Virus record (IMG/VR): IMGVR_UViG_3300030102_007485
Span: 1-64,000 of that record
Reading direction: 5' to 3' (one strand)
DNA from: a virus
DNA: 64,000 bases
Under the pieces are notes generated by a model. It ran no database searches and was not told where the DNA came from. It saw only the letters and a program-made list of their open reading frames with translations. How positions within the stretch are numbered: the first letter of the stretch is position 1; the number at the start of each line of letters is the position of its first letter. Both the position numbers and the translations under genes were made by a program. Below are positions 30,226 through 46,413 of this stretch, in pieces.

Positions 30226-31458
30226 ATGACAGAAAAAATAAAAATTATGACTATATCTGACTCGCCTTTTGCCCCCTCCGGAGTCGGAACTCAAACAAGA
30301 TACATGATCGAAGCACTTTTAAAGACAGGTAAGTTTTCTGTTTTTTCAATCGCAGGAGCAATTCAGCACGCAGATTATAGACTGATAAAAACAGATGAGT
30401 ATGGTGAGGATTGGATAACTCAACCCATTGATGGGTATGGAAACCCTGAAGTCATAAGGTCTATGGTGATGAATAAGAAACCAGATATCCTATGGTTTAT
30501 GACTGATCCAAGATTCTATGAATGGTTGTGGAATATGGACTCAGAAATTAGAAAAAACGTTCCTATGGTTTATTATCATGTTTGGGACAACTATCCATAT
30601 CCAACTTTTAATAGGAAGTGGTATCTTTCTAATGACTTTGTTGCAACAATCAGCAAAGTCACAGATGATATTGTAAAGACCGTTGCACCAGAGGTGGAAT
30701 CTCTTTATGTGCCTCATGCAGTTGAGTCTGAGGTTTTTTCAAAAAAAGATGTGCCAAAAAGAGAGGGGTTGAAAGATAAGTTTGTCTTCTTTTGGAATAA
30801 TAGGAATGCTAGGCGTAAACAGTCGGGTACTTTGATTTTCTGGTTTAAGGAGTTCCTTGATAAGGTTGGGCATGACAAGGCATCACTGATCATGCACACG
30901 GAACCAAATGATCAGCATGGGCAGGATTTAATTGCAATATTGGAAGAACTGGATTTAACAGACGGTCAGGTCTTGTTATCGACTCAAAAAATGCCATTAG
31001 AGCAGTTGGCAGGTCTTTACAACATGGCAGACTGCACTATAAACATTTCTGATGCTGAAGGGTTCGGATTGGCAACACTAGAGTCTTTGTCTTGTGAAAC
31101 GCCAATTATAGTTACGATGACAGGTGGATTACAAGAACAGGTAACCGATGGAGAAGAGTGGTTTGGTGTCGGAATAAATCCAACAGCAAAGGCGATCATC
31201 GGTTCTCAGCAGGTGCCATGGATATATGAAGATAGGATTTGCAAAGAGGACTTCCTAGCAGCGTTAGAAAGGATGTACAACATGTCAGACGAAGATCGTG
31301 CGACGATGGGAAGGAAGGGCAGAGAGCACGTAGAAAAGAATTATTCCTTCCCTCAGTATGAGTCTAAGTGGGTTGACCTTCTTGAGGACTTACATCAAAG
31401 ACATGGATCTTGGGAAACTAGAAAGAATTATCAAACTTGGGAGTTGACAGAATTATGA
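30226..31458 (+). CDS. Glycosyltransferase family 4-like (island start)
   Basis: The 410-residue protein has the GT-B layout: an N-terminal SDSPFAPSGVGTQTRYMIEA, then a C-terminal nucleotide-sugar domain with FFWNNRNARRKQSGT and the E-x7-E motif DAEGFGLATLESLSCETPII, followed by TMTGGLQEQ. GT4 enzymes use UDP-, GDP- or ADP-sugars and retain the anomer. It is the first gene of the glycan island and overlaps the next gene by ATGA. No membrane segment is seen. Confidence 0.85.
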   Translation: MTEKIKIMTISDSPFAPSGVGTQTRYMIEALLKTGKFSVFSIAGAIQHADYRLIKTDEYGEDWITQPIDGYGNPEVIRSMVMNKKPDILWFMTDPRFYEWLWNMDSEIRKNVPMVYYHVWDNYPYPTFNRKWYLSNDFVATISKVTDDIVKTVAPEVESLYVPHAVESEVFSKKDVPKREGLKDKFVFFWNNRNARRKQSGTLIFWFKEFLDKVGHDKASLIMHTEPNDQHGQDLIAILEELDLTDGQVLLSTQKMPLEQLAGLYNMADCTINISDAEGFGLATLESLSCETPIIVTMTGGLQEQVTDGEEWFGVGINPTAKAIIGSQQVPWIYEDRICKEDFLAALERMYNMSDEDRATMGRKGREHVEKNYSFPQYESKWVDLLEDLHQRHGSWETRKNYQTWELTEL

Positions 31459-32729
31459 AAATACTATTAGAGGCACCAATCTTAACTCAATCTGGGTATG
31501 GAGAGCACGCAAGGTTTGTTTTTCGCGCACTTGAGCAAATTCCAGGTATAGACGTATACATTAATCCTCTGTCGTGGGGAACAACTAGTTGGGTTTCCGA
31601 CGCTAACTCTGAGAGAGGGGCAATCGATGAAAACATAAGAAAGAATGTTTTGTATGTTCAAAATTGTAAAAATGCGTCTGTAGAACCTCAATATGATGTG
31701 CAGATTCATGTTGGCATTCCAAATGAATTTCAAAAAAAGGCAAAATATTCAGTTTGTGTTACTGCTGGAATTGAAACGGACAAGGTTCACCCCAAGTGGA
31801 TTGCAAACATTGCGTCTGGCATAGACAAAATAATTGTGCCATCTGAACATGCAAAGTCTGGGTTTGTGAGCACTGAATATCAGTTTCAGCAGCAGGATGG
31901 TCAGGCGATCACTTTAGGTTGCCGAGCACCTGTCGAGGTTGTTCCTTATCCCGTTAAGGATTTGAAATCAGACCCAATAGACGTTCAGTTTGAGCATGAT
32001 TTTAATTTCTTGACGGTTGCTATGTGGGGCAAGAGAAAGAACTTAGAAAACACAATAAAATGGTTTGTTGAGGAGTTTAGGGAGGAAGAGGTTGGACTGA
32101 TCCTGAAAACCAACCTATCTAGAAACTCGACACCAGATAGAGAGTTGTCTAAGGCATCTATATCAAGCATCTTGTCGAATATGGGAGAAAGAAAGTGCAA
32201 GGTGTACCTATTGCATGGAGAACTCTCTGAGGAGCAACTACATTCCTTATATGAACACCCCAAGGTCAAAGCATATGTCACAGCAACGCATGGGGAGGGT
32301 TTTGGTCTTCCTCTTTTTGAGGCGGCATATTCAGGACTGCCGATTGTTGCGACGGATTGGAGCGGTCACTTGGACTTTTTAACCGCAGAAGTCAAGGACA
32401 AGAAATCAAAAAAGTTAAAATTAAAAAAACTTTTTGCCAAAGTAGATTATAATCTAGATAACGTGCCACAAGACGTAGTTTGGGAAAACATCATATATCA
32501 AGATTCCAAGTGGGCGTTTCCGAAAGAAAAGTCTTTTAAAGATCAGATTAGAAAGTGCTATAAGCAATATGGTGTTTATAAGTCGTTTGCTAAGACCTTA
32601 AAAGAGTCCGTAGTGGAAGAGTATGAGTATTCAAAGGTGTTGGAGCAAATGAAGACCGCACTTATTCCCGCCGAGATGCTTCCAGACCCTGCTTGGGCAG
32701 ACGCTTTATCGTCAATAGAGATATTGTGA
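31455..32729 (+). CDS. Glycosyltransferase family 4-like
   Basis: The 424-residue protein has an N-terminal MKILLEAPILTQSGYGEHAR (Gly-rich donor or acceptor loop), a basic motif in VAMWGKRKNLENTI, and the E-x7-E box ATHGEGFGLPLFEAAYSGLP, followed by IVATDWSGHLDF. ATG 31455 overlaps the previous stop. The donor sugar cannot be read; the neighbours suggest ADP-heptose or a GDP-sugar. It shares the layout, but little sequence, with the 30226 protein. Confidence 0.8.
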   Translation: MKILLEAPILTQSGYGEHARFVFRALEQIPGIDVYINPLSWGTTSWVSDANSERGAIDENIRKNVLYVQNCKNASVEPQYDVQIHVGIPNEFQKKAKYSVCVTAGIETDKVHPKWIANIASGIDKIIVPSEHAKSGFVSTEYQFQQQDGQAITLGCRAPVEVVPYPVKDLKSDPIDVQFEHDFNFLTVAMWGKRKNLENTIKWFVEEFREEEVGLILKTNLSRNSTPDRELSKASISSILSNMGERKCKVYLLHGELSEEQLHSLYEHPKVKAYVTATHGEGFGLPLFEAAYSGLPIVATDWSGHLDFLTAEVKDKKSKKLKLKKLFAKVDYNLDNVPQDVVWENIIYQDSKWAFPKEKSFKDQIRKCYKQYGVYKSFAKTLKESVVEEYEYSKVLEQMKTALIPAEMLPDPAWADALSSIEIL

Positions 32730-33562
32730 AAATAGGATTTTTGTCAGATTTTTTTGAGCAACACTTGCTTGGCGGCGCTGAACTGAATGATGGTGTTTTG
32801 ATAGATCACTTACAGAAAAGTCATCAAGTTATCCGCTTGATTAGTTCTGCTACAACCAAATCTGACATTGATTCTGTTGATTTTGTAATAGTCTCCAATT
32901 TCGCAAGTGCGAACCCTCAGTTGCTAGACTACATCATATTTTCTAAACCTTATTTGGTGTACGAGCATGATCACAAATATGTTACAAATAGGGATCCATC
33001 TAAATTCAAAAATTTTAATATCCCAAACGAATTTATTGTAAATAGGGAGTTGTACGCTTCGGCAAGAAAAGTAGTTTGTCTGAGCAGTAGTCAGACTTCT
33101 ATAATTGAATCAAATTTAGGTTTAAAGAATTTGGAAAATATATCTTGTAGTTTGTGGAGTCAAAAGAGACTAAACCTTCTAAGAGAACTTAGTAAGGTTG
33201 AAAAAAATCAAATTTTTGCAATAATGGATTCTGCCAATCCTATAAAAAATACTGTGCTCGCTCAAAAGATGTGTGAACAAAAAAGCATTCCTTACGAACT
33301 TATAAGCAGTAAAGACCAAGAGCAGTTTATAAGAATTCTATCTAGGTATGAGGGTTTGGTATTTATCCCTGGCGTTCTGGAGTCGTTGTCTCGATTGGTT
33401 ACCGAGGCAAAAATGATGAATTGTAAAATAATTACAACTCCAAAGATGCTGGGTGCTTCTTACGAAGATTGGTTTTCTCTCTCTGGTGAACCCCTTATAG
33501 ACGTCATAGAGGAGAACGTCGCCCGTGCATTGAATCTTTTTGGAGAAATTATAGAACAATGA
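32726..33562 (+). CDS. Glycosyltransferase-like protein
   Basis: The GTG start at 32726 overlaps the upstream TGA. The 278-residue protein starts MKIGFLSDFFEQHLLGGAEL, a typical N-terminal GT-B strand and Gly loop, with a central SKPYLVYEHDHKYVTNRDPS and a C-terminal RYEGLVFIPGVLESLSRLVT followed by EAKMMNCKIITTP, a variant of the nucleotide-sugar site. Shorter than full GT-B enzymes. It lies directly upstream of hldD. Function as a transferase is likely but the family number is uncertain. Confidence 0.7.
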   Translation: MKIGFLSDFFEQHLLGGAELNDGVLIDHLQKSHQVIRLISSATTKSDIDSVDFVIVSNFASANPQLLDYIIFSKPYLVYEHDHKYVTNRDPSKFKNFNIPNEFIVNRELYASARKVVCLSSSQTSIIESNLGLKNLENISCSLWSQKRLNLLRELSKVEKNQIFAIMDSANPIKNTVLAQKMCEQKSIPYELISSKDQEQFIRILSRYEGLVFIPGVLESLSRLVTEAKMMNCKIITTPKMLGASYEDWFSLSGEPLIDVIEENVARALNLFGEIIEQ

Positions 33563-34467
33563 TTGTTATAACTGGAGCAAATGGGTTTATAGGCAAGAAC
33601 TTGTTGAAAAGTTTTCCTAAAAATCAAGACATTATTGCTGTTGATTACTCACACAATAATCTAAAGCAGGAAATAAAGCAACGAAAAAAGCATTTATATT
33701 TGTTAAGTCCAAAGGACTTTTTGGACATGTTTAGATCAGGACCTTGTTCGATAAGTTTTGTGTTTCACCAAGGTGCTTGCACAGATACTACCTGCCACGA
33801 CACAGCGTACATGCTTGAAAGAAACTACGACTACACGTACAAACTAATAAACTTATGCGTGTCATCCTCAACACCTTTAGTGTATGCAAGTTCTGCCTCG
33901 GTTTATGGTGACGGACCTTTTAGCGAAACGTCTCAAATGAATCCTAAAAACATTTATGCAAAATCAAAAAGTATGATCGACGATTATGTGTCCGTTATAA
34001 GTCAGACCACTAAATCGCAAATTACCGGACTGAGGTATTTTAACGTGTATGGTCCCTTTGAAGAGAGCAAGGGTAAAATGTCTTCTGTATTGAATCAGTT
34101 TAAAAAGCAGATCGATACAACGGGAACTATAAAAATATTTGAAAACAGTCAGGCATATAAAAGAGATTTTATATTTGTGAATGATATTGTAAAAATAAAC
34201 AAGCATTTTTATGAAAGCGGACATTCGGGTATATTCAATTGTGGCACCGGACAGGCAGAAAGATTTACTGAAATACCAAGAGTCTTAAAAAAATATTATG
34301 AGTTTGATATAATTGAGATACCAATGCCGCAAACTTTGATTGGTAAATATCAAGAGTTTACAGAATCTGACACAGCAAATCTGAGAGGTTTTGGGGAATA
34401 CAAGGAGGGGTTCCTTTCCCTTGAGCAGGGAATTGAGGAGTACGTCAAATATTGGGAAAAAGAGTAG
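33559..34467 (+). CDS. hldD: ADP-L-glycero-D-manno-heptose 6-epimerase (HldD-like)
   Basis: The 302-residue SDR enzyme follows E. coli HldD closely: MIVITGANGFIGKNLLKSF for NAD(P), FVFHQGACTDTT, LVYASSASVYGD, YAKSK (Tyr-x3-Lys), GLRYFNVYGPFEESKGKMSS, KRDFIFVNDIVKIN and GIFNCGTGQAERF. It converts ADP-D-glycero- to ADP-L-glycero-manno-heptose, the donor of LPS core heptose. It is followed by both hldE-type activities, in overlapping order. ATG 33559 overlaps the previous stop by 4 bp. Confidence 0.9.
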   Translation: MIVITGANGFIGKNLLKSFPKNQDIIAVDYSHNNLKQEIKQRKKHLYLLSPKDFLDMFRSGPCSISFVFHQGACTDTTCHDTAYMLERNYDYTYKLINLCVSSSTPLVYASSASVYGDGPFSETSQMNPKNIYAKSKSMIDDYVSVISQTTKSQITGLRYFNVYGPFEESKGKMSSVLNQFKKQIDTTGTIKIFENSQAYKRDFIFVNDIVKINKHFYESGHSGIFNCGTGQAERFTEIPRVLKKYYEFDIIEIPMPQTLIGKYQEFTESDTANLRGFGEYKEGFLSLEQGIEEYVKYWEKE

Positions 34468-34856
34468 CGTTTGTTAACGGGTGTTTTGATGTTTTACACT
34501 TTGGTCATTTGAAGTTGTTAGAGTTTGCCCGCAATGATGCGGATTTTTTAATTGTGGCAATCGACAGCGATTCTCGTGTAAAAGAGTCAAAGGGTGACTC
34601 AAGACCCTTCAACAAGCAAGAGGTAAGAAAATACTTTTTACAGTCCTTGAGGTTTGTAGATCGTGTAGAGGTTTTTGCATCGGATTCAGAACTTGAGCAA
34701 CTAGTTAGGTTGAACAATCCAGATGTGATGATCGTTGGGTCTGATTATCGCAATAAAACGGTGATTGGTTCCCAATATGCTAAGGAACTAAAGTTTTTTG
34801 AGAGAATAGATGACCATTCAACAACAAAAATATTGCAGCATACTTCTAATAGGTGA
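34452..34856 (+). CDS. Heptose 1-phosphate adenylyltransferase (HldE C-terminal domain as separate gene)
   Basis: The 134-residue protein has RVAFVNGCFDVLHFGHLKLL with HxGH (His16, His19), then VAIDSDSRVKESKGDSRPFN and ILQHTSNR-type C terminus. The full layout matches the HldE C-terminal domain (rfaE2), which makes ADP-heptose from heptose 1-phosphate and ATP. In E. coli the domain is fused C-terminal to the kinase; here it is separate and lies upstream of the kinase. The TTG start at 34452 overlaps hldD by 16 bp. The related glycerol-3-phosphate cytidylyltransferases share HxGH, so substrate is set mainly by context. Confidence 0.85.
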   Translation: MGKRVAFVNGCFDVLHFGHLKLLEFARNDADFLIVAIDSDSRVKESKGDSRPFNKQEVRKYFLQSLRFVDRVEVFASDSELEQLVRLNNPDVMIVGSDYRNKTVIGSQYAKELKFFERIDDHSTTKILQHTSNR

Positions 34857-35607
34857 TTCGTGTGTGGACAAGTTCCACTATGGCACTTGTGATAGGATAA
34901 GTCCAGAGGCACCAGTATCTGTATTTAAGCATATTAAGACTGAAGAAAGAGACGGCATGTGCCTGAATGTCAAGATGAATCTATTGGCATTCGGTTTTGC
35001 AGAAATTTCTGTTATTACCAATGCAGAGAGTATTTCCAAGGAAAGGTTTATAGATGCCAATTCTGGACAGCATTTATTGAGAACTGATTTCGGTGAAAGG
35101 GAGAAATTAAAACCCTTTATGGTTACCTCAAATGTAGAGAAGGATATAGCAGGTTATGACTATGTGGTTATTTCGGACTATGAAAAAGGGTTTATTACCT
35201 ATGAGACCGCTGAGAAAATAGTCACTTCATGTGTTAAAAATGGTGTTCCTGTTTTTGTTGACTCTAAAAAGCGAGACCTGTCTTGTTTTGACGGTGCAAT
35301 TATAAAAATAAATGAAAAAGAATTCGATGTCCTAGATAAGACAACTGTCAATAAGGAAAACTTGGTTGTTACTTATGGAAAGGGCGGCGCGAAATGGAAA
35401 GGGATTTCTTATCCCACCAACGTGGTAGAAGTCTCAGATGTGAGTGGTGCAGGAGATACCTTTCTTGCCGCATTGGTCTATGGACACTACGCGTTTGGAA
35501 GTATGGACGAAGCAATAAGGTTAGCAAACAGGTGTTCCGGGTTTGTTGTTCAGAAAAGTGGAACGTATGCGCTGAGTTGGCAAGATGTACAAGACATATG
35601 TAATTGA
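34810..35607 (+). CDS. Heptose 7-phosphate kinase (HldE N-terminal domain as separate gene)
   Basis: The 265-residue PfkB-family protein has ILLIGDSCVDKFHYGTCDRI followed by SPEAPVSVFK, a hallmark of HldE, and SDVSGAGDTFLAALVYGHYA with the catalytic Asp near 212. It phosphorylates D-glycero-D-manno-heptose 7-phosphate to the 1,7-bisphosphate. It overlaps the adenylyltransferase gene by 47 bp and the HAD gene by 23 bp. A few canonical segments (a shortened middle) are missing compared with the roughly 310-residue bacterial domain. Confidence 0.85.
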   Translation: MTIQQQKYCSILLIGDSCVDKFHYGTCDRISPEAPVSVFKHIKTEERDGMCLNVKMNLLAFGFAEISVITNAESISKERFIDANSGQHLLRTDFGEREKLKPFMVTSNVEKDIAGYDYVVISDYEKGFITYETAEKIVTSCVKNGVPVFVDSKKRDLSCFDGAIIKINEKEFDVLDKTTVNKENLVVTYGKGGAKWKGISYPTNVVEVSDVSGAGDTFLAALVYGHYAFGSMDEAIRLANRCSGFVVQKSGTYALSWQDVQDICN

Positions 35608-35926
35608 TATAGACGGTACAATATGTACCAAAACTGATGGAGATTATCGAGATGCCCGCCCTTTTGAAGACAGGATTGCGGTGCTAAACGAATTGCATGA
35701 TCGAGGTCATCAGATAATATATTTAACCGCTAGGGGAATGGGTCGCTTTAACAATGATGAATATTTGGCGAATAGGATGTTTTACAAACTTACAAAAGAT
35801 CAACTAGAGCAGTGGGGTGTCAAGTATACTTCCCTGTTTTTGGGCAAACCCGCGGGAGATATATATGTCGATGACAAAGGGTGCAGTGACGTTGATTTCT
35901 TTAGTACCAGGAGATTTGAACAATGA
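35585..35926 (+). CDS. HAD-family phosphatase
   Basis: The 113-residue protein starts MYKTYVIDIDGTICTKTDGD (nucleophile DxD), followed by HQIIYLTARGMG (motif II Thr) and GKPAGDIYVDDKGCSDVDF (Lys and the acidic motif). It is a cap-less, compact HAD enzyme. In this position it could supply the heptose 1,7-bisphosphate phosphatase step (normally GmhB), although it does not resemble GmhB closely; it looks more like HAD proteins of capsule loci. It overlaps both neighbours. Confidence 0.75.
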   Translation: MYKTYVIDIDGTICTKTDGDYRDARPFEDRIAVLNELHDRGHQIIYLTARGMGRFNNDEYLANRMFYKLTKDQLEQWGVKYTSLFLGKPAGDIYVDDKGCSDVDFFSTRRFEQ

Positions 35927-36288
35927 CCGACAAAACACATTTGGATATGCATTTTGTCCCAAAGGGTTGGGGGTTTGAGAAGTGGATTGTAAACTGTGAT
36001 GAGTATTGTGGTAAGTTATTGTATTTTGTAAAGGGTAAAAGGTGCTCATGGCACTATCACGAATTAAAAGACGAGGTGTTCTACATACAGTCTGGAAAGA
36101 TATTAGTGAAATACTCAGAGTCAGATGACATAGGATCTGCACAAGAGAGGGTCCTGGCAAGGGGTGATAACTTCCATGTATACAGGGGATTGAGGCATCA
36201 AATGATCGCACTAGAGGACACAGAATTGTTTGAGTTCTCGACACAACATTTCGATTCGGATAGTTATAGGATTCAAAAGGGGGACTAA
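35923..36288 (+). CDS. Cupin, mannose-6-phosphate isomerase type
   Basis: The 121-residue single-domain cupin has CSWHYHELKDEVFYIQSGKI (metal ligands H-x-H and E), then ARGDNFHVYRGLRHQMIALE with the second-half His. The sequence around GWGFEKWIVN and KGKRCSWHYH is like the C-terminal domain of type II mannose-6-phosphate isomerases, as I recall. It could convert fructose 6-phosphate to mannose 6-phosphate for the phosphomannomutase at 20038, or act on another sugar. ATG 35923 overlaps the previous stop by 4 bp. Confidence 0.75.
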   Translation: MTDKTHLDMHFVPKGWGFEKWIVNCDEYCGKLLYFVKGKRCSWHYHELKDEVFYIQSGKILVKYSESDDIGSAQERVLARGDNFHVYRGLRHQMIALEDTELFEFSTQHFDSDSYRIQKGD

Positions 36289-36289
36289 A

Positions 36290-37857: not shown

Positions 37858-37867
37858 GGGGGTTAGA

Positions 37868-38467
37868 ATGTCTGATTACATAAAGATAATAAAAACAAAT
37901 AAAAAAAATATACAATTTGACATCCGACATAGGAGTGTTATAGACAGTTTTCCTGTCTATGACCCTGTAAGAACAGTCTTAGATGTTGGGTGTGGTCACG
38001 CCGCCGTCCCTAGGGAGTTGAGTGCCATGGGATTCACTGTCGATGCCATAGACATCGAGGAGAAAAGCAGTTGGAGTGAACCCACAGGCGTAAATTTTAT
38101 TCAGGATGATTTTATGGTTTCTAATAAGATTAAAAATGAGTATGACGTTGTTATGTGTTGTGAGGTGTTGGAGCATTTGACAAATTACAAAGAATTTTTT
38201 AACAAACTAATCAGTCTCGCAAAGCACAGACTGATCATCACTGTACCTTGGGAAAGATCCTACGACATGCCAGGTGATCCACCCATAGGTCATTGTAATT
38301 TTTGGTCAGATCAAGAAACTGGTAGTTTTAAGTCGATTGATGAGTTTTTGGATTTTGCAGAACCCTATTCTGTTTCCATATCAAAAATCTTAACAAAACC
38401 AAGAGATGTTTCTATGAAGCAAAAGGATTACCTAATCATCATAGACAAAAGGCAGACACATGGTTAG
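37868..38467 (+). CDS. SAM-dependent methyltransferase
   Basis: The 199-residue protein has the class I methyltransferase signature: VLDVGCGHAAVPRELSAMGF (motif I), VDAIDIEEK (motif II) and VVMCCEVLEHL (motif IV). In the glycan island it probably methylates a sugar hydroxyl or an intermediate. ATG 37868 follows AGGGGGGTTAGA. It overlaps the next gene by 8 bp. Confidence 0.85.
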   Translation: MSDYIKIIKTNKKNIQFDIRHRSVIDSFPVYDPVRTVLDVGCGHAAVPRELSAMGFTVDAIDIEEKSSWSEPTGVNFIQDDFMVSNKIKNEYDVVMCCEVLEHLTNYKEFFNKLISLAKHRLIITVPWERSYDMPGDPPIGHCNFWSDQETGSFKSIDEFLDFAEPYSVSISKILTKPRDVSMKQKDYLIIIDKRQTHG

Positions 38468-39332
38468 TGTCCTATTCGTGGGAGTTTTTGATAAAACCCG
38501 AACCTCAACAAATACATCTCAAATATTGTCATTTAAGAACATAGGTTGCGAGGTTGTTGGATATGACTATAGAAGGCGCGCACTAGAAATTGGCAATTCC
38601 AATAGAGACGTTGAGATTGTAGACCTTGTGAGGAAGAGGTCGTTTGACCTTGTTGTTTACAGTAAGTGTAGTGAGGTTTCAAGTGAAGTCTTTGTTGAAA
38701 ATGCAAAAACAACTAAAACATGTATGTGGTTTATGGACCCGCTTATTTCATACAGCGACGAGATGCGCCAAAAAACTCGACTAGTAGACTATTTTTGTTG
38801 TGATAAGGAGAATGTGCTGGAAGAGGCAAAAAAATATAATGAAAAAAGTTTTCATGTGTGCGAAGGGTACGATGAAGAAGTAGACAAACCAGTGCATGTA
38901 GATGTCAAGTACGATGTCAGTTTTATAGGCGATACATATGGTGATCGACTATCAAAGATCCGCAACATAAACACCCCAGTTCAGGTTATCAATGGTGTTT
39001 ATGGTAAGAAACACGCTGAAGCGGTTTGCAGTACAAGGATAAATTTAAACTTTTGCACCTCAGACGGCGCTTCTGACAGGGTTTACAAGATCATGGCATC
39101 CGGTGGGTTTTTGTTGTCTGATGATTGGAAAGGTCGCGAAAAACACTTTAAAGATGGTCAAGAAATTGTTATATTTAAATCTGTGGAAGATCTCAACGAA
39201 AAGATAGATTATTATCTAAAAAATCCACAACAAAGAAAAGACATAGCAAACAGTGCTTTGAAGAAAGTTAAAAAATTCAATAGAGCAAACTGGGCAAAAA
39301 GAATAATCGACATATATGAGCAAATTAGATAA
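38460..39332 (+). CDS. CgeB-like glycosyltransferase
   Basis: The 290-residue protein has the CgeB or spore-type GT layout: TCMWFMDPLISYSDEM, VKYDVSFIGDTYGDR, STRINLNFCTSDGASDRVYK, and IMASGGFLLSDDWKGREKHF, followed by DGQEIVIFKSVEDLNEKIDY. This C-terminal pattern (MASGGFLL...F.DG.EIVxF...L..K) is the mark of the family of GT-B enzymes called glycos_transf_1_2. It starts inside the methyltransferase stop region and overlaps the next gene by 17 bp. Confidence 0.75.
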   Translation: MVSVLFVGVFDKTRTSTNTSQILSFKNIGCEVVGYDYRRRALEIGNSNRDVEIVDLVRKRSFDLVVYSKCSEVSSEVFVENAKTTKTCMWFMDPLISYSDEMRQKTRLVDYFCCDKENVLEEAKKYNEKSFHVCEGYDEEVDKPVHVDVKYDVSFIGDTYGDRLSKIRNINTPVQVINGVYGKKHAEAVCSTRINLNFCTSDGASDRVYKIMASGGFLLSDDWKGREKHFKDGQEIVIFKSVEDLNEKIDYYLKNPQQRKDIANSALKKVKKFNRANWAKRIIDIYEQIR

Positions 39333-40140
39333 GCATTTGGTCGCTGGTCCTTGGATTGGTGAGTTTGGTTGGGAATTATTTGCTTGGCAGGCATACATCA
39401 GGGCAATGTCAAGACTTTATGAAAAAACAACAATAATTTGTAGAAGCAGTTCTGTGCACTTGTATGAAGATTTTTCAAATGACTTTATTGACTGCAGTCC
39501 CACTGACGGACAAGCAGATTCTTTTTTTATGAATGGGGTAGACTTGAATTTACTTTGCAATAAAGTGCTTAGGGAGAATCGTCAACTTCTAGGTCCAAAA
39601 ACAGTGTTTGTGCCACCCAGGCGAGTGGGTTTTCCGCCACAAACCTCTTATTTGGAGGCAATTTCTTTTGGACAGCATTCTGTAAAACCGGAATATATAA
39701 AGTACGGACGTAAGAACAAGAGGCAATACGACTATGTTTTCCACATCAGGAGCAGAGAACTTAGAAAGCAGGATAATTGGAGTATTGAAAATTGGCAAAA
39801 CTTAAGAAAACTTTTGGGAGACGACAAAAGAATTGCGTGCATTGGGACGAAAAGGTCTTCAGGTATCATTGGGGATGTTGACGACCTCAGAGATCAACCT
39901 CTGAAGGAGGTTTGTGATGTTCTGTACAATTCCAGTTGTGCATTTGGTCCTTCTTCTGGACCTATGCATCTTGCAAGTTTGTGTGGTACTCCACATGTTG
40001 TCTGGTCTCGACCCGAGAACAAAAATAGGTACGAAATTACATGGAATCCACTAAGTACAAAAGTGTTGTTCATGGGTGATCATTCGTGGCATCCTAGTTC
40101 AGAGTATGTGTATGAAAATTATAAAAAATGGAGTGAGTAA
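39316..40140 (+). CDS. GT9-like glycosyltransferase
   Basis: The 274-residue protein starts HLVAGPWIGEFGWELFAWQA and has the GT9-type donor site SSCAFGPSSGPMHLASLCGT, followed by PHVVWS. The same motif (PxSGxMHLAxxxGxPxVxxW) marks heptosyltransferases. A second heptose-like transfer is therefore likely; the acceptor is unknown. It overlaps the preceding gene and ends directly before the carbamoyltransferase. Confidence 0.75.
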   Translation: MSKLDKHLVAGPWIGEFGWELFAWQAYIRAMSRLYEKTTIICRSSSVHLYEDFSNDFIDCSPTDGQADSFFMNGVDLNLLCNKVLRENRQLLGPKTVFVPPRRVGFPPQTSYLEAISFGQHSVKPEYIKYGRKNKRQYDYVFHIRSRELRKQDNWSIENWQNLRKLLGDDKRIACIGTKRSSGIIGDVDDLRDQPLKEVCDVLYNSSCAFGPSSGPMHLASLCGTPHVVWSRPENKNRYEITWNPLSTKVLFMGDHSWHPSSEYVYENYKKWSE

Positions 40141-41742
40141 GTGAAGATAGTAGGTTTTCAGTCTGGACATGATGTTTCGTACTGTATTTTAGAAAATGGA
40201 GTGCCCATAGTGCACGAAGAGTTGGAGAGGGTCATAAGAAAGAAAGAACCAGGTGGTGATGGTTTAGAATTCTTTTTTGAAAGAAACAAAGATTTGCAGG
40301 ATATCAAGCATTTCGCCTTTGGTTGTTTTGGTTCGAGGAGCGAGTATTGGTCTAAGCGAGCGCGATTTGATCCATTTAAAAAAGAGTTTGATAAAAAAAT
40401 GAAGGACGTTTTGAGGTCGTCTGGAGGGAGGTATTATGAACTGGGTCACCATTTGAGTCATGCAGCAAACGCATACTATACAAGTCCATTTGATGAGGCA
40501 ATGATAATAACAGTCGATGGAGGCGGTTCAGAGTCTCCTGGACAAACAACCGCACTGACTATAAATTATGGCATACAAAACAAGATAAATAGACTACACA
40601 TATATCCAGAACATCAGGTAAATTTAGGGAGTTTATGGTTCAAATTTACAGGAGAGATCTTTGGTCTTTCCACTGGTTATCCAATAGGAAATCAGGCAGG
40701 TTCGGTCATGGCAATGGCAACCATGGGTGAGGCAAAGTACCTAGACTTGATGCACCTAAACATGGCGTACGATACAAATATGCCTAATTTTATAAAATTA
40801 AAAGAAATTGCTTCAAGGTCAGAACAAGACTCTTTTGATGTCGCAGCAACTTTGCAAGTCTATACAGAGACTACATTTAGAGATGCAATAGAGTTTTGGA
40901 TGAACAAGTACAAACCCAACAATGTCTGCTTTTCGGGAGGAGTGTCTCTTAATTGTGTAATGCTTGGTAAAATAAAAGACTGGTTTCCTTTTGTAAAGCA
41001 TATTTTTTGTGACCCTGTGCCTTATGACGGCGGATTATCGCTAGGATCAGCAAGGTATGTCTGGCATCACTTGTTGGATAATCCAAAAATAAAGTCTGCG
41101 GAAAATATGACGCCATATCTTGGCAGACCATACAATGAAAATGAAATCACTGCATCCATTGAGGAATACAGGTCATCAGGCAAAATAAGGACAAAAAGCA
41201 CTACAGATGACGAAGTTTTAGATCTTCTTGATTCTCAAAAGATAGTTGCTGTATTTGGTGGCGCATCCGAATCTGGTCGCCGCGCTCTTGGTAATAGGAG
41301 TATACTGGCAGACCCTAGATCTGATAAGATGAAAGACACGATTAATCAGAGAGTCAAGCATCGTCAGTGGTACAGACCCTTTGCCCCTTCAATCTTGATA
41401 GAGGACACCAAGGATTGGTTTGAGGACGCCGTTTACAGTCCTTATATGTCATTTGCACTAAAATTTAAAAAAGACAAGGCGTCACAAGTCCCAGCGGTGG
41501 TGCATGAAGACGGAACAGGAAGGTTGCAAACGGTACAATCTTCTCTTAACCCATGGTACCACAATTTTATTACAAAATGGAAAGAAAAGTCAGGAGTGCC
41601 AATATTGCTGAACACCAGTTTTAATGACAGGGAACCAATAGTTGAGACTCCAGAGGATGCAATCAAGTGCTTTATTGGAACTGATATTGATTATTTGTAC
41701 TTTTATGAAACTGGTAATCTGGTCTCGAAAGGGGACGTTTAG
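40141..41742 (+). CDS. NodU/CmcH-family O-carbamoyltransferase
   Basis: The 533-residue protein has both domains of the family: YELGHHLSHAANAYYTSPFD (metal-binding His), MIITVDGGGSESPGQTTALT, NVCFSGGVSLNCVMLGKI, then the C-terminal FGGASESGRRALGNRSILAD, QRVKHRQWYRPFAPSIL and VPILLNTSFNDREPIVETP. Such enzymes transfer carbamoyl from carbamoyl phosphate via carbamoyl-adenylate to a hydroxyl, as on Nod factors or cephalosporins. Here a sugar of the phage glycan is the likely acceptor. GTG 40141 directly follows the previous stop. Confidence 0.9.
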   Translation: MKIVGFQSGHDVSYCILENGVPIVHEELERVIRKKEPGGDGLEFFFERNKDLQDIKHFAFGCFGSRSEYWSKRARFDPFKKEFDKKMKDVLRSSGGRYYELGHHLSHAANAYYTSPFDEAMIITVDGGGSESPGQTTALTINYGIQNKINRLHIYPEHQVNLGSLWFKFTGEIFGLSTGYPIGNQAGSVMAMATMGEAKYLDLMHLNMAYDTNMPNFIKLKEIASRSEQDSFDVAATLQVYTETTFRDAIEFWMNKYKPNNVCFSGGVSLNCVMLGKIKDWFPFVKHIFCDPVPYDGGLSLGSARYVWHHLLDNPKIKSAENMTPYLGRPYNENEITASIEEYRSSGKIRTKSTTDDEVLDLLDSQKIVAVFGGASESGRRALGNRSILADPRSDKMKDTINQRVKHRQWYRPFAPSILIEDTKDWFEDAVYSPYMSFALKFKKDKASQVPAVVHEDGTGRLQTVQSSLNPWYHNFITKWKEKSGVPILLNTSFNDREPIVETPEDAIKCFIGTDIDYLYFYETGNLVSKGDV

Positions 41743-42476
41743 TGAAAAGGTTTTTGTGCACAAGCAATAAGTATGTAGATATTGTGGCAGATCACGCGCT
41801 TCTTTATAATAAGTTCTCTTCAGAAAGGAGGGAAGTAGAAGTCTTAGGGTTTGACCCTCCCTCGGTTGAATATCCGGATAATTACAAGTTTGTCTCCATG
41901 GGTAAGCAAGAGGACTTTCCTAATAAGGACTGGTCTACTCCAATTTTGCCTTTTATTGATGCAATAGAGGGTAGGTGTTTTGAGTTTTGGTGGGATGACA
42001 TGTTTCCAATTAGACCGTTCCGAGAAGACTTGTATGAAGAGGGGTCACGATTGATTGAGGATGGGAAGGTTCAAAAAGTCCATTTTTTCATGGGGTCGAA
42101 AGAACAATACTATTCGTGCAAACCTTATAACCAAAACTTTATGGTACTTTCGCAAGAAGCAGAGTACCGCTCAGGATTACCCGCCGCTTTTTGGGACAAG
42201 GAATATTTTTTAAAAAACTTAAAACCAGGCATGACTCCATGGCAATATGAAATACACAATCAACCAAAAATGTATCGCGATGGTGCGATACAATTGATAC
42301 CAAAAAATGAACCAATTGTGGGATGGGTCAACATGTTTAGGCAGGGAAAGTTTAATGATTGGATGTGGAACAATTACAAGAATAGTGAAACTGGTCATTT
42401 TGCTTGGAATAAGTTTCAAAAATTGACGCCCGACGTGGCAGCAATCGTGGGATCCTATGAAGGAAAGGAATTGTGA
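41742..42476 (+). CDS. Unknown protein of the glycan island, 244 residues
   Basis: The protein starts MKRFLCTSNKYVDIVADHAL and has RCFEFWWDDMFPIRPFREDL, with a DDxxP-like acidic motif, and a C-terminal NDWMWNNYKNSETGHFAWNK. The aromatic and acidic clusters suggest a GT-A-like transferase, since DD or DxD motifs bind metal and nucleotide-sugar, but no family is recognised. The GTG start overlaps the carbamoyltransferase stop, and the end overlaps the next start. Confidence 0.55.
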   Translation: MKRFLCTSNKYVDIVADHALLYNKFSSERREVEVLGFDPPSVEYPDNYKFVSMGKQEDFPNKDWSTPILPFIDAIEGRCFEFWWDDMFPIRPFREDLYEEGSRLIEDGKVQKVHFFMGSKEQYYSCKPYNQNFMVLSQEAEYRSGLPAAFWDKEYFLKNLKPGMTPWQYEIHNQPKMYRDGAIQLIPKNEPIVGWVNMFRQGKFNDWMWNNYKNSETGHFAWNKFQKLTPDVAAIVGSYEGKEL

Positions 42477-43576
42477 TGAAAATACCTCAGTTTATGCCTC
42501 TCGTCGGAAAGGACGAATATACTGCAATTAAGAAATGCTTTGAAGATAATTGGATTACCGAAGGACCACAGGCGAAAATTTTTAAAGAAAAGTTGTTAAA
42601 GTTGATTGGGTCCAAGCACGGTGAGTTCGCTCCAAACGGCACACTGGCAATCTACTTAGCATTAAAGGCGGCGGGGGTCCAACCGGGTGATGAGGTGTTG
42701 GTACCTAATTTCACCTTTATTGCATCTGCTACATCTGTTGTCATGGTTGGTGCAACTCCAATTTTTGTGGATGTAGACGAGAACTTGCAAATAGATCTAA
42801 GTAAGTGTGGTGCACGCCTATCTGACAAGACCACGGCGATTATGACCGCTCACATGTACGGCACTTGTGGAGATATGCCATCGGTTATGCAGTTTGCAAG
42901 AAAGCATGGACTTGTTGTTGTTGAGGACGCCGCACAAGCACTCGGAGTTACTTGGGACGGTCAGCACGCTGGGACTTTTGGAGATGTTGCAACTTTTTCT
43001 TTTTTTGCTGATAAGACAATCACTTGTGGCGAAGGTGGTTTTGTAATCACAAACGACGACAACGTGGCAGAAGAGTTAGTTTATCTAAGAAATCAAGGAA
43101 GGATAAACAGGGGCACCTTTGTCCATCCAGAGATAGGGTATAACTTCAGAATAACAGACATGCACGCAGCAATGGGCAATGTTCAAATAGGCAAACTAGA
43201 TTGGATAGTGGGTAGAAAACTAGAGATATACCAGGCGTATAAAAAAAGATTGCAAAGCAATTCAAGGTTTTCTTTTTTTGGTCCCATGAAAAAGTCTGGG
43301 TTTATACCATTTAGAGTTTGTATTATTGATAAACTGGGGCAAGCGTCAAACGTGATGGATAAGTTGCAAGAACATGGCGTTGAACCACGAACTTTTTTCT
43401 ACCCAATGCACAAGCAACCATGTTTTTCGGACATTGTCAAAAAAGCAAACTACTCAGAGGACGAGTTCTCTGTGTCTAATAAAATGTATGAAAGTGGTGT
43501 TTGTCTTCCCACCTTTTTGCAAATTACGGATGAAGAAATAGACTACATTTGTGATATAATCAATAGTAATTTTTAG
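42476..43576 (+). CDS. DegT/DnrJ-family sugar aminotransferase, perosamine synthetase-like
   Basis: The 366-residue protein has the PLP fold type I layout of sugar aminotransferases: EFAPNGTLAIYLALKAAGVQ, VVVEDAAQALGVTWDG, FSFFADKTITCGEGGFVIT with the Schiff-base Lys near 180, and GVEPRTFFYPMHKQPCF. This last segment is typical of GDP-perosamine synthetase and close relatives. With GDP-mannose 4,6-dehydratase nearby, GDP-4-keto-6-deoxymannose to GDP-perosamine is a likely reaction. ATG 42476 is preferred over GTG 42473 for spacing from AAGGAAAGG. Confidence 0.85.
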   Translation: MKIPQFMPLVGKDEYTAIKKCFEDNWITEGPQAKIFKEKLLKLIGSKHGEFAPNGTLAIYLALKAAGVQPGDEVLVPNFTFIASATSVVMVGATPIFVDVDENLQIDLSKCGARLSDKTTAIMTAHMYGTCGDMPSVMQFARKHGLVVVEDAAQALGVTWDGQHAGTFGDVATFSFFADKTITCGEGGFVITNDDNVAEELVYLRNQGRINRGTFVHPEIGYNFRITDMHAAMGNVQIGKLDWIVGRKLEIYQAYKKRLQSNSRFSFFGPMKKSGFIPFRVCIIDKLGQASNVMDKLQEHGVEPRTFFYPMHKQPCFSDIVKKANYSEDEFSVSNKMYESGVCLPTFLQITDEEIDYICDIINSNF

Positions 43577-43587
43577 GAGGTTATATT

Positions 43588-44745
43588 ATGAAATACCCGT
43601 TGGTCAAAGACACAATACGTGATAGCGACATAGATTCTCTTTGTGAGTGGTTGAAGACGTATCCAAGGTTATCTAAGGGTCCTTTGACGCCTGTCTTTGA
43701 GGACAAGTGGTCAAAGTGGTTAGGTTCAAAATATTCTGTTTATGTAAATTCTGGTTCTTCTGCAAATTTACTTATATTAAGCGCTCTTGTGGAGACAGGT
43801 AGAATCTCTAGGGACGCAAAGGTCGTAGTGCCTGCTGTTAGTTGGGCAACTGACCTCGCCCCAGTGATGCAACTAGGGTTGTCACCTGTTTTGTGTGATT
43901 GTAATATGGAGGATCTTTCAATAGACCTGGAGCAGTTTGAAAAGGTTTGCCAAGTCGAACGACCTCAAGCAATAATTTTTGTCAGTGTTCTTGGATTGGT
44001 GCCAGATATGGAGCGTTTGACGTCCATTTGCGAGAGATATGGAGTTATTCTTATAGAAGATACTTGTGAATCCTTCGGCAGCGAGTACCAGGGTAAAAAG
44101 TTGGGTACTTTTGGACTCGCTTCCACGTTTAGTTTGTATTTTGGTCATCACCTGTCAACGATTGAGGGTGGAATTGTCTCCACTGACGATGCTGATCTGT
44201 ACAATGCTCTGTTAAGTATTCGGAGTCATGGTTGGATGCGAGATTGCGAAAGTGAATACGCACTAAAAAAACACAAAGAGTGGCAAACAGAAGAATTTAA
44301 CAGTTGTTATACTTTTTACTACCCAGGGTTCAACCTTCGCAGTACTGATCTCCAGGCACATATCGGAATTAGACAGATGGATTATGCAGATACCGTGAAT
44401 CGCACTCGTGAACAAAATTTTAGATATTATTTGCAATCGATTTCAGATGAAATTTGGAAACCGATGTATCGTGAGGGTTGTTTTGTCTCTAATTTTTGCT
44501 ATCCTTTGGTAGTAGACAACCGACAGACTGTGTGTGACCACCTAGAACGAAACGGCATTGAAACAAGACCGCTTATTGCGGGGTCTATGTCTAGTCAACC
44601 ATTTTATGTTCAAAGATATGGTGAAAGTTTGATGCCAAATGCAGACAGAGTACACAAAAATGGTCTGTATATACCAAATAATCATGCTATGACACCACAG
44701 CAGGTAGGTTTTATATCATCTGTCGTAAATCGATCCATTCAGTAA
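43588..44745 (+). CDS. ColD-like GDP-4-keto-6-deoxymannose 3-dehydratase (His in place of Lys)
   Basis: The 385-residue protein has the DegT-family fold (NSGSSANLLILSALVE, IEDTCESFGSEYQGKKLGTF) but the active-site Lys is replaced: TFSLYFGHHLSTIEGGIVST, with His187 and His188. This is the mark of PMP-dependent 3-dehydratases such as ColD, whose catalytic His is at 188 as I recall, and RfbH (but without the Fe-S Cys of RfbH). It would remove the 3-hydroxyl from GDP-4-keto-6-deoxymannose, the first committed step to GDP-colitose. ATG 43588 follows TAGGAGGTTATATT. Confidence 0.85.
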   Translation: MKYPLVKDTIRDSDIDSLCEWLKTYPRLSKGPLTPVFEDKWSKWLGSKYSVYVNSGSSANLLILSALVETGRISRDAKVVVPAVSWATDLAPVMQLGLSPVLCDCNMEDLSIDLEQFEKVCQVERPQAIIFVSVLGLVPDMERLTSICERYGVILIEDTCESFGSEYQGKKLGTFGLASTFSLYFGHHLSTIEGGIVSTDDADLYNALLSIRSHGWMRDCESEYALKKHKEWQTEEFNSCYTFYYPGFNLRSTDLQAHIGIRQMDYADTVNRTREQNFRYYLQSISDEIWKPMYREGCFVSNFCYPLVVDNRQTVCDHLERNGIETRPLIAGSMSSQPFYVQRYGESLMPNADRVHKNGLYIPNNHAMTPQQVGFISSVVNRSIQ

Positions 44746-45245
44746 TGAATTTTCCTAAAAAACAGGCAAAAACCCAATCTTTTGATGGTCTGGTCATCGA
44801 TAATCCAGATTGTTACCATGATTTTAGAGGATATTACTGGACAGTCTGCAAAGATGATGAGAAAATATACAATCATGACAAGATCACTGTCTCAAAAAGG
44901 AATGTTCTTAGGGGGATCCATGGTGACTTTAACACCGTCAAGATGGTATCGTGCGTATACGGTGAAATCTACTGTGTGGTTGTGGACAAGAGACCAGATT
45001 CCAAGACATACGACCAGTGGCGCTGGATAATGCTCAGTCACACCAATAGAACAACCGTAAAAATCCCCGCAGGTGTTGGATTGTCCTATCTTGTAACCAG
45101 TGACGAGGCGACAGTGCTTTATAAACTCTCTTATAGAGGGTCTTATCAGGATTCAGACAACCAATTTACATACAAGTGGGACGACCCAAATTTGGGGATA
45201 GATTGGCCAATTAGTTCTCCAATATTGCAAAAAAGAGATAAATAA
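44745..45245 (+). CDS. RmlC-like sugar epimerase (cupin)
   Basis: The 166-residue protein has the RmlC fold pattern: DCYHDFRGYYWTVC, NVLRGIHGDFNTVKMVSCVY with the catalytic His near 58 (RGxH), GEIYCVVVDKRPDSKTYDQW, and a Tyr/Val-rich VGLSYLVTSDEATVLYKLSY. RmlC epimerises 4-keto sugars at C3 and C5. No dTDP pathway is seen, so the substrate may be a GDP-4-keto sugar. ATG 44745 overlaps the ColD-like stop. Confidence 0.8.
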   Translation: MNFPKKQAKTQSFDGLVIDNPDCYHDFRGYYWTVCKDDEKIYNHDKITVSKRNVLRGIHGDFNTVKMVSCVYGEIYCVVVDKRPDSKTYDQWRWIMLSHTNRTTVKIPAGVGLSYLVTSDEATVLYKLSYRGSYQDSDNQFTYKWDDPNLGIDWPISSPILQKRDK

Positions 45246-45283
45246 AGAAAAAAAAACATAAATATATGGTAGTATGGTGTAGT

Positions 45284-45451
45284 ATGACTTACGAATTATG
45301 GCAACTGGTGACTTATGGAGAGGGAGAACCGCCGACCCCCTTGTTTAAGATCGCAGAATCTAAAGAATTTGAAGATATTTATAGACTATTCATGAAAGAG
45401 GTAAAAACTAAGTTGTGTGTAATAGTCCTACAAAAGGAGGGCAAGAATTGA
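45284..45451 (+). CDS. Small protein in the glycan island, 55 residues
   Basis: The product (MTYELWQLVTYGEGEPPTPL...) is a small alpha/beta protein ending LCVIVLQKEGKN. The pattern MxYELxQLVTYGEGE resembles small marine-phage proteins, as I recall. Its stop overlaps the TTG start of GMD. ATG 45284 is the likely start, but an in-frame ATG at 45266 is possible; neither has a strong ribosome site. Confidence 0.55.
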   Translation: MTYELWQLVTYGEGEPPTPLFKIAESKEFEDIYRLFMKEVKTKLCVIVLQKEGKN

Positions 45452-46413
45452 AGCGAGCACTCATAACTGGCATTAGCGGACAGGACGGAAGTTACTTGGC
45501 AGAGTATCTACTTGGTTTGGGATATGAAGTCCACGGCACCGTCCGACGCCACTCTGTTTCTGAGAATCAGACAGCAAGACTTAAAGACATAGAGAACAGC
45601 ATACAGACTCATTATGCGGATCTAACAGATCACCACTCCCTCAGAAGGGTCTTCAATGTCTCACAACCAGATGAGATCTACAACCTTGCCGCTATGAGTC
45701 ATGTTAGGGTTAGTTTCGATATGCCAGCATACACAATACAAACGAATGCACTGGGTGTTCTTAATATGTTGGAGATTTACAGAGAGAGTTTTCCAAAAGC
45801 AAAGTTCTATCAAGCATCATCATCTGAAATGTTTGGAAACTCGATAGATTCGGATGGAATTCAAAGACTTAGCACCCCAATGAACCCTGTCAGTCCGTAT
45901 GGGTGCTCTAAGGTTATGGGATATAATCTGGTTAGGCACTATAGAAATGCTTACGGATTACATGCCTGTAATGGCGTTTTGTTCAATCATGAGTCGCCTC
46001 GTAGAGGAACAAACTTTGTGACCAACAAGGTTGTAAAAACCGCGGTACAAATAAAAAAAGGCGTTGTAGACAAATTAGAACTTGGGAACCTAGACGCAAA
46101 AAGGGATTGGGGTCACTCTCTTGACTACGTCAGAGCAATGCATATGATCACAAATCACACCACACCAGATGAGTTTGTCATTGCAACTGGGATAACTCAT
46201 TCTGTCAGAGACTTGTGTGAAACCGTTTTTTCTAAACTGGGCATGAATTATAAAGATTATGTCGTACAAAATCAAAAATATATGCGACCAGAAGAGTTGG
46301 AATATCTCAAAGGTGATCCAACTCGCGCCAAAGAAATTTTAGGATGGGAACCAGAGTATACCTTTGATTCTATGATCGAAGAGATGATAGCAAGATGGAT
46401 GCGCGAGATCTGA
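45448..46413 (+). CDS. gmd: GDP-mannose 4,6-dehydratase
   Basis: The 321-residue SDR enzyme starts KRALITGISGQDGSYLAEYL (NADP-binding GxxGxDG), followed by GTVRRHS, DLTDHHSLRRVF, YNLAAMSHVRVSFDMPAYT, FYQASSSEMFGN (SSE catalytic), SPYGCSKVMGYN (Tyr-x3-Lys), NHESPRRGTNFVTNKV and NLDAKRDWGHSLDYVRAMH. These are the standard GMD motifs. It converts GDP-mannose to GDP-4-keto-6-deoxymannose, the substrate of the ColD-like and perosamine-synthetase-like enzymes. The start is TTG 45448 with AAAGGAGGG upstream, overlapping the previous stop. Confidence 0.95.
   Translation: MKRALITGISGQDGSYLAEYLLGLGYEVHGTVRRHSVSENQTARLKDIENSIQTHYADLTDHHSLRRVFNVSQPDEIYNLAAMSHVRVSFDMPAYTIQTNALGVLNMLEIYRESFPKAKFYQASSSEMFGNSIDSDGIQRLSTPMNPVSPYGCSKVMGYNLVRHYRNAYGLHACNGVLFNHESPRRGTNFVTNKVVKTAVQIKKGVVDKLELGNLDAKRDWGHSLDYVRAMHMITNHTTPDEFVIATGITHSVRDLCETVFSKLGMNYKDYVVQNQKYMRPEELEYLKGDPTRAKEILGWEPEYTFDSMIEEMIARWMREI

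What the first reader, a model, noticed from the sequence alone, without database searches (positions are those of the whole stretch)
30226..46413. Phage-borne 16-kb glycan factory combining ADP-heptose, GDP-deoxy/amino-sugar, sulfation and carbamoylation genes
Seen: about 19 head-to-tail, mostly overlapping genes with no promoter or strand change, including HldD, both HldE activities, HAD, cupin, sulfotransferase-like, two GT9-like, several other GTs, methyltransferase, NodU-type carbamoyltransferase, perosamine-synthetase-like, ColD-like, RmlC-like and GMD. Known: these enzymes make and decorate LPS or O-antigen sugars. Inference: the phage builds a sugar structure of its own, perhaps on its virion (capsid or tail glycosylation), or remodels host LPS against superinfection. 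A set this complete in a T4-like phage is unusual.
Basis: partly seen in the sequence, partly recalled or inferred. Interest (0 to 1): 0.9.

Follow-up and report, generated by a model that had tools for sequence, protein, structure and literature searches.

The report
Swappable sugar-making gene island in phages
A group of mostly aquatic viruses of bacteria carries, always at the same spot in the genome, a block of sugar-making genes that differs almost completely from one virus to the next, much as bacteria swap surface-sugar genes; the sugar probably coats the virus itself, although a change to the host's surface is not excluded.

Summary
The 16-kb block is real: 19 intact, overlapping, same-strand genes. 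Sulfotransferase and GT9 assignments are not supported.

The block is not a conserved unit. It is one allele of a hypervariable glycan island at a fixed site in a Far-T4 phage lineage. In 49 related IMG/VR records holding both flanks, the left flank (nuclease, glycosyltransferases g1 and g2) and right flank (three small genes, sigma factor) are constant. Between them lie 0-27 genes, mostly recognisable as sugar-related; three sites are empty. Content overlap is unrelated to g1 identity (rho 0.03), and phages 82-85% identical in g1 share no island gene at 40% identity. Flavobacterium phage immuto and Microcystis phage Mel-JY01 carry sugar genes at the same place.

None of 776 island proteins has two or more predicted membrane segments; no flippase or phosphoglycosyl transferase was found in 51 records; TS-type hydroxymethylases are nearly absent.

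I favour soluble, cytoplasmic assembly of a lineage-specific oligosaccharide that core GTs g1/g2 help attach to a virion protein, as in chloroviruses (confidence 0.5). Host LPS-core remodelling is the main rival. Cyanophage and pelagimyophage sugar clusters are known; this fixed-site locus in Far-T4 phages was not found described.

The parts
26898..28208 (+). PIN-PhoH gene, conserved left anchor
   Evidence: 53-70% identity in 80 viral contigs; same order in g1-bearing loci
28479..29147 (+). conserved left-anchor protein of unknown function
   Evidence: present upstream of exo in nearly all g1-bearing loci
29354..30217 (+). PD-(D/E)XK-type nuclease (exo), conserved left anchor
   Evidence: homologues annotated PD-(D/E)XK nuclease in immuto and Mel-JY01
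30226..31458 (+). g1: core GT4-type glycosyltransferase (GT-B fold), present also where the island is empty
   Evidence: PF00534; about 60% identity in 80 contigs; model pLDDT 89.7, top PDB match by Foldseek chlorovirus NY-2A GT 3oy2
31455..32729 (+). g2: core GT4-type glycosyltransferase, left border of the island
   Evidence: PF00534; next to g1 in nearly all relatives
32705..33562 (+). g3: first insert gene, no profile match, often first in the island
   Evidence: no Pfam/PHROG match; homologues right after g2 in many islands
33559..34467 (+). g4: HldD-like ADP-heptose epimerase
   Evidence: TIGR02197 E 1.4e-85, over cut-off
34452..34856 (+). g5: HldE C-domain-like nucleotidyltransferase (HxGH motif)
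   Evidence: TIGR02199 E 1.1e-33, below cut-off; motif
34810..35607 (+). g6: HldE N-domain-like PfkB sugar kinase (GAGD motif)
   Evidence: TIGR02198 E 6.7e-48, below cut-off; motif
35585..35926 (+). g7: small HAD phosphatase (DxDGT), candidate GmhB substitute
   Evidence: TIGR01689 EcbF-BcbF E 1.3e-11; motif
35923..36288 (+). g8: cupin, most conserved insert gene
   Evidence: PF07883; up to 88% identity in other phages
   Evidence: no family match; 65% identical homologue in L200
37102..37857 (+). g10: unknown, possible GT
   Evidence: no family match; 63% identical homologue in L200
37868..38467 (+). g11: SAM methyltransferase
   Evidence: PF13489 E 1.7e-12
38460..39332 (+). g12: glycosyltransferase
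   Evidence: PF13524 E 2e-24
39316..40140 (+). g13: possible GT-B glycosyltransferase (GT9 only E 0.12)
40141..41742 (+). g14: Nol/NodU-type carbamoyltransferase
   Evidence: PF16861 5.6e-62, PF02543 5.3e-21; phrog_1601 2.8e-113
41742..42476 (+). g15: unknown
   Evidence: no family match; 36% identical homologue in L200
42473..43576 (+). g16: perosamine-synthase-like sugar aminotransferase, PLP lysine kept
   Evidence: PF01041 1.4e-99; PDB best match perosamine synthetase 2.4e-65
43588..44745 (+). g17: ColD-like 3-dehydratase, His in place of PLP lysine (FGHHLSTIEGG)
   Evidence: PDB best match WbdK/ColD 6.3e-61; motif
44745..45245 (+). g18: RmlC-family 3,5-epimerase-like
   Evidence: PF00908 9.1e-33
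45415..46413 (+). g20: GDP-mannose 4,6-dehydratase, right end of the insert
   Evidence: TIGR01472 3e-112, slightly below cut-off; 76% identical in L146
46417..47303 (+). post1-post3: three small conserved genes, right border (post2 is a zinc ribbon)
   Evidence: conserved downstream of almost all islands; PF09723
47248..47976 (+). gp55-like late sigma factor, right anchor
   Evidence: phrog_234 8.4e-6; found in 49 of 50 records tested
20038..20787 (+). eukaryotic-type phosphomannomutase, likely supplies mannose-1-phosphate to the GDP-sugar branch
   Evidence: PF03332 6.7e-29; PDB phosphomannomutase 2 6.8e-30

Best explanation
Shown: 30226-46413 is one allele of a hypervariable glycan-biosynthesis island at a fixed genomic site of a Far-T4-type phage lineage, bordered on the left by two core glycosyltransferases (g1, g2) and on the right by three small genes and a late sigma factor. 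Inferred: the phage makes its own activated sugars in the host cytoplasm. One branch is ADP-heptose (kinase g6, HAD g7, nucleotidyltransferase g5, epimerase g4), using host sedoheptulose-7-phosphate isomerase. The other is GDP-deoxyamino sugars from GDP-mannose (phosphomannomutase at 20038, GMD g20, 3-dehydratase g17, epimerase g18, 4-aminotransferase g16). Soluble glycosyltransferases join them, and g11 and g14 add methyl and carbamoyl groups. Because no membrane step is encoded, the acceptor is most likely a cytoplasmic one: a virion protein, with g1/g2 making a conserved inner part and the swappable genes the variable outer part, so that the locus works like a serotype locus of the virus particle.
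For: Fixed flanks with variable content in 49 records; g1-sigma interval 1.6-26 kb, median 16 kb. Content similarity unrelated to g1 identity (rho 0.03, p 0.26); pairs 82-85% identical in g1 share no island gene at 40% identity. 756 of 759 island genes on the anchor strand. 0 of 776 island proteins with two or more membrane segments, whereas the E. coli K-12 control shows 6 for Wzy and 9 for Wzx. PF02397 and PF01943 in 0 of 51 records, with positive controls. g1/g2 kept even where the island is empty. g1's top Foldseek PDB match is a chlorovirus GT. Chloroviruses glycosylate their capsid in the cytoplasm with virus enzymes, with a conserved core glycan (PMC7826918). g16-g17 adjacency recurs with the His signature. 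All insert genes look constrained.
Against: No acceptor protein, glycan or expression timing is known. ADP-heptose is the usual donor for LPS inner core, and LPS-core glycosyltransferases such as WaaG are soluble and act from the cytoplasm, so lack of membrane proteins does not exclude LPS. GT4 is a broad fold (Z of the chlorovirus GT is tied with sucrose-phosphate synthase). Published readings of comparable cyanophage and pelagimyophage clusters favour host-surface change against superinfection (PMC7824862, PMC7029224). g3, g9, g10, g13 and g15 have no assigned function.
Confidence: 0.5

Rival explanations
1. Host-surface remodelling: the phage's soluble transferases add heptose and deoxyamino sugars to the LPS core (or to a host lipid-linked intermediate that the host's own flippase exports), which hides receptors from competing phages or from reabsorption of progeny.
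For: HldD/HldE-type genes are LPS inner-core genes. The HldE2-HldE1-HAD-cupin module with carbamoyltransferase also occurs in cyanophage P-SSM2, and similar clusters have been read as LPS genes against superinfection (PMC7824862, PMC7029224). Hypervariability fits competition between phages.
Against: No membrane protein, flippase, polymerase, phosphoglycosyl transferase or O-acetylase-like membrane enzyme in any of 50 islands, although known serotype-converting phage loci (Gtr type, own knowledge) use membrane proteins. The island lies next to the late sigma factor; expression timing itself was not tested.
Confidence: 0.33
2. DNA hypermodification: g1/g2 and island transferases build a glycan on hydroxymethylated pyrimidines of the phage DNA against restriction.
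For: Phage glycosyltransferases can modify DNA; glycan-bearing phage DNA has been reported (Pyle et al. 2024, cited in PMC12619734).
Against: The thymidylate-synthase/hydroxymethylase family PF00303 was found in only 1 of 25 IMG/VR records searched (G050), and is absent from the other records of 170-204 kb and from Mel-JY01 and RM378; immuto has one. The heptose, deoxyamino and carbamoyl gene load is unlike the known DNA-glycosylation gene sets (own knowledge).
Confidence: 0.08
3. The island is a store of acquired host genes or an assembly chimera without a phage function.
For: Metagenome contig of unknown host; content differs in every relative.
Against: Same flanks in 49 records and, on the left side, in two sequenced isolates; genes intact, pN 0.09-0.44 against pS 0.75-0.95; close relatives of g1 in the genome collection lie only on phage-like stretches.
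Confidence: 0.03

Closest known systems
Cyanophage sugar clusters (Prochlorococcus phage P-SSM2, Synechococcus phages S-CAM1, S-SSM7, S-SCSM1)
   Same: HldE2-HldE1-HAD-cupin module in the same order, next to a Nol-like carbamoyltransferase, in T4-superfamily marine phages; GMD and GTs in S-SCSM1 (PMC9602691)
   Different: In P-SSM2 the module lies among tail-fibre genes; the g1 search of isolated phages hits no marine cyanomyophage; kinase proteins 35-44% identical
Pelagimyophage host recognition cluster (PMC7029224)
   Same: Large hypervariable island with glycosyltransferases at a fixed place between core genes
   Different: Lies between VrlC and gp14 and contains tail fibres; the present island lies between core GTs and the late sigma factor and consists mostly of sugar-type genes, with no tail fibre recognised
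Far-T4 phages (Roux et al. 2015, PMC4360716), RM378, immuto, Mel-JY01
   Same: gp23 43-50% identical to that of the nearest relative tested; immuto and Mel-JY01 have exo, g1, g2 and then sugar genes
   Different: The 2015 paper mentions no glycosyltransferase or LPS gene; RM378 has g1 but no sugar genes behind it
Chlorovirus capsid glycosylation
   Same: Virus-encoded GTs, conserved core glycan, made in the cytoplasm (PMC7826918); g1 resembles NY-2A GT 3oy2 in fold
   Different: Eukaryotic virus; only 18% identity; no evidence yet of a glycan on these phages
Bacterial O-antigen loci (E. coli K-12 rfb)
   Same: Fixed borders, strain-specific sugar genes, GMD/ColD/perosamine-synthase/RmlC-type enzymes
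   Different: No Wzx, Wzy or initiating phosphoglycosyl transferase

Membership tests
Far-T4 phage lineage | T4-type gp23 capsid protein closer to RM378/immuto than to cyano- or true T4 phages | tested here: met
   Met for relatives: PF07068 in 15 of 24 IMG/VR relatives searched; gp23 of G049 43-50% to immuto/Mel-JY01/RM378 and 31-35% to cyanophages. The window's own 77.9-kb record holds no gp23, so for it the assignment rests on g1, g2, gp6-like baseplate and flank synteny
Wzx/Wzy-type O-antigen locus | Flippase, polymerase and initiating phosphoglycosyl transferase | tested here: not met
   0 of 51 records for PF01943 and PF02397; no multi-membrane protein in 776
ADP-heptose pathway | HldD epimerase | tested here: met
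   TIGR02197 287.3 bits, cut-off 274.6
ADP-heptose pathway | Heptose kinase and nucleotidyltransferase (HldE) | tested here: inconclusive
   Best NCBIfam matches are the two rfaE domains but below cut-off; catalytic motifs kept
ADP-heptose pathway | GmhA isomerase in the phage | tested here: not met
   SIS_2 not found in the record; none over cut-off in 51 records; the host must supply it
GDP-colitose/perosamine-type pathway | GMD, ColD with His in place of PLP lysine, perosamine-synthase-like aminotransferase with lysine | tested here: met
GDP-colitose pathway | ColC-type C5 epimerase/C4 reductase | tested here: inconclusive
   None recognised in the block; g4 is HldD-like, g18 RmlC-like; not searched specifically
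T4-type hydroxymethyl-pyrimidine DNA glucosylation | TS-family hydroxymethylase in the lineage | tested here: not met
   PF00303 in 1 of 25 IMG/VR records searched; present in immuto
Virion glycosylation system | Glycan on a structural protein | not testable with these tools
   needs purified virions

The most novel reading that the evidence does not exclude
A widespread aquatic phage lineage carries a true 'serotype locus' of the virus particle: a fixed-site, frequently replaced gene island that gives each phage its own virion glycan built on a conserved core made by g1/g2, so that virions rather than cells have O-antigen-like diversity.
Probability: 0.42. Interest if true: 0.88.

Novelty: new variant of a known kind. 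Interest (0 to 1): 0.68.

Why it matters
Phage-borne LPS-like clusters have been treated as scattered auxiliary genes for host-surface change. A fixed-site, hypervariable, membrane-free glycan locus kept next to two core glycosyltransferases suggests that sugar diversity is a standing trait of a whole phage lineage. If the sugars coat virions, this would be a prokaryotic parallel to chlorovirus capsid glycans, with consequences for adsorption, grazing and phage competition. The question is testable now in an isolate that has the arrangement and a cultured host (immuto on Flavobacterium sp. LMO8).

Tried and rejected
Whole-block DNA match to isolated phages: none. Z-genome idea from phrog_1211 at 14994: rejected, the protein is PurA-like and its best matches are bacterial adenylosuccinate synthetases, PurZ far down. 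T4 late-promoter consensus TATAAATA to time the island: 6 matches against 3.1 expected, none just upstream of g1, uninformative. Host from the tmRNA tag: no match in genome contigs; close g1 hits only on phage-like stretches binned into unrelated MAGs, so the host stays unknown. Fold of g9: failed model, viral-contig scan by pattern empty although a 65% homologue sits in L200. GDP-mannose pyrophosphorylase: PF00483 absent from this record, present in 7 relatives. Paper searches for Far-T4 plus glycosyltransferase: none held; Freeman 2023 and Sullivan 2005 not held.
Full report
Observation. The window lies in a 77,879-bp linear virus record. Between 30226 and 46413, 19 genes on the + strand fill the DNA almost completely (16,143 coding bases over 16,188 bp), most neighbours overlapping by 1-47 bp. 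Family scans support HldD, separate HldE-type kinase and nucleotidyltransferase, a small HAD, a cupin, a methyltransferase, GT4-type transferases, a Nol-type carbamoyltransferase, two DegT-fold enzymes, an RmlC-family protein and GMD. g16 keeps the PLP lysine and is closest to perosamine synthetase; g17 has His in its place and is closest to ColD.

Not a unit but an allele. A search with g1 brought 80 viral contigs. Their left flank is constant (PhoH, a 222-aa protein, nuclease, g1, g2), but what follows g2 differs. For 49 records the right flank (sigma factor) is on the same contig; the g1-sigma distance runs from 1.6 to 26 kb, median 16.1 kb, against 15.8 kb here. I fetched these intervals and called genes: 759 of 100 aa or more, 0-27 per island, 756 on the anchor strand. 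Three sites are empty or nearly so (G044, G034, G050), with g2 next to the small right-flank genes (G044, G034) or to one small gene and sigma (G050). In G050 and its relatives L003 and L004, GMD and ColD lie left of the nuclease instead.

Turnover. At 40% identity the 776 proteins (window included) form 420 clusters, 301 of them singletons. Mean Jaccard overlap of content between phages is 0.04 and is not correlated with g1 identity (rho 0.03, p 0.26); several pairs 82-85% identical in g1 share nothing. Some modules recur: HldD-HldE2-HldE1-HAD-cupin after g3, or HldE1-HldE2-HAD-cupin before the right flank, and PerA next to a ColD-like protein in five other islands. Locus L200 carries homologues of most of the window's insert genes (g3-g10, g12, g13, g15 and a PerA-like gene) in nearly the same order. 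A Pfam scan of 150 representatives finds mostly epimerases/dehydratases, GT2, GT4 and GT11, methyltransferases, formyltransferases, radical SAM, aminotransferases and CTP-sugar transferases; many representatives are not assigned.

Lineage. gp23 of a close relative (G049) is 43-50% identical to those of immuto, Mel-JY01 and RM378 and 31-35% to cyanophage gp23, which is the Far-T4 group of Roux et al. (PMC4360716). Flavobacterium phage immuto has nuclease, g1, g2, then GTs, two aminotransferases, methyltransferase and epimerase; Microcystis phage Mel-JY01 has nuclease, GuaB, g1 (split), g2, then GTs and a methyltransferase; RM378 has g1 and no sugar genes. The arrangement thus spans phages of Bacteroidota and Cyanobacteria. 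The host of this phage is unknown.

Which acceptor? Three tests were made. (a) Membrane steps: 0 of 776 proteins have two or more hydrophobic segments, while the same counter gives 6 and 9 for Wzy and Wzx of E. coli K-12; phosphoglycosyl transferase and flippase families are absent from all 51 records with positive controls. The isolates' islands give the same result. This argues against a self-contained O-antigen route, but not against decoration of LPS core by soluble enzymes. (b) DNA: the TS/hydroxymethylase family is nearly absent. (c) Core transferase: g1 (model pLDDT 89.7) is a GT-B GT4 enzyme; a chlorovirus GT is the top Foldseek match and second by Z, tied with sucrose-phosphate synthase. 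With published chlorovirus work (PMC7826918) this makes a virion protein my favoured acceptor, at about even odds; it is an inference.

Pathways (inferred). Heptose: host GmhA, g6, g7, g5, g4; no SIS isomerase in the record. GDP sugars: a eukaryotic-type phosphomannomutase at 20038-20784, 10 kb to the left, with matches in 7 of 51 records, then a pyrophosphorylase from the host or from the unseen part of the genome (PF00483 absent here), GMD, ColD-like, RmlC-like and PerA-like steps, which could give a GDP-4-amino-3,4,6-trideoxyhexose or two separate sugars.

Selection. Against nearest homologues pN is 0.09-0.44 and pS 0.75-0.95 (saturated), so the genes are kept as functional proteins.

Known and new. 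Sugar clusters in cyanophages and pelagimyophages are known and have been read as host-surface genes (P-SSM2 module). I found no description of this fixed-site island in Far-T4 phages in the held library, which covers open-licence papers only.

Limits. Gene calls in the relatives come from a simple ORF picker of my own, and membrane segments from a hydropathy window, not a trained predictor. The 49 records were found through g1, so the sample is of one lineage; most are fragments.

Noticed in passing
20912-21220: One-piece tmRNA gene, tag ANDDVEIFEDYALAA; related phages carry tmRNAs upstream of PhoH with varying tags. No bacterial genome contig matched the tag pattern.
   Followed up: partly
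14994-15995: Phage adenylosuccinate synthetase of the PurA type (PHROG label suggests PurZ, but best PDB matches are bacterial PurA).
   Followed up: partly
22508-22900: NifU-like iron-sulfur scaffold protein (PF01592, E 1.2e-52) in a phage.
   Followed up: no
24890-25534: ClpP-like protease (PF00574), possibly a prohead protease or an auxiliary gene.
   Followed up: no
51141-62864 and L002:5670-15797: Two giant proteins of 3907 and 3375 aa in the structural region; only a short peptidoglycan-binding match in the first. Possible glycan acceptors or adhesins.
   Followed up: no
16784-18886: 700-aa protein with a nucleotidyltransferase-like HxGH stretch in its middle, function unknown.
   Followed up: no
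L366 (P-SSM2) 13737-14418: RefSeq names 'phosphoheptose isomerase' (PSSM2_311) and 'cysteine dioxygenase' (PSSM2_312) fall on the positions of the small HAD and the cupin; the labels look like carried-over misannotations.
   Followed up: partly
L327 (CP070664.1, WOR-3 MAG chromosome): PhoH, nuclease and a truncated g1 of this phage lineage inside a MAG 'chromosome': phage sequence in the assembly, by chimerism or integration.
   Followed up: partly
L328, L329 (Halobacteriovorax MAG contigs): Two contigs of one MAG carry GMD, nuclease, g1, g2 and sigma with the island site empty, like G050: a deep branch of the same lineage.
   Followed up: no
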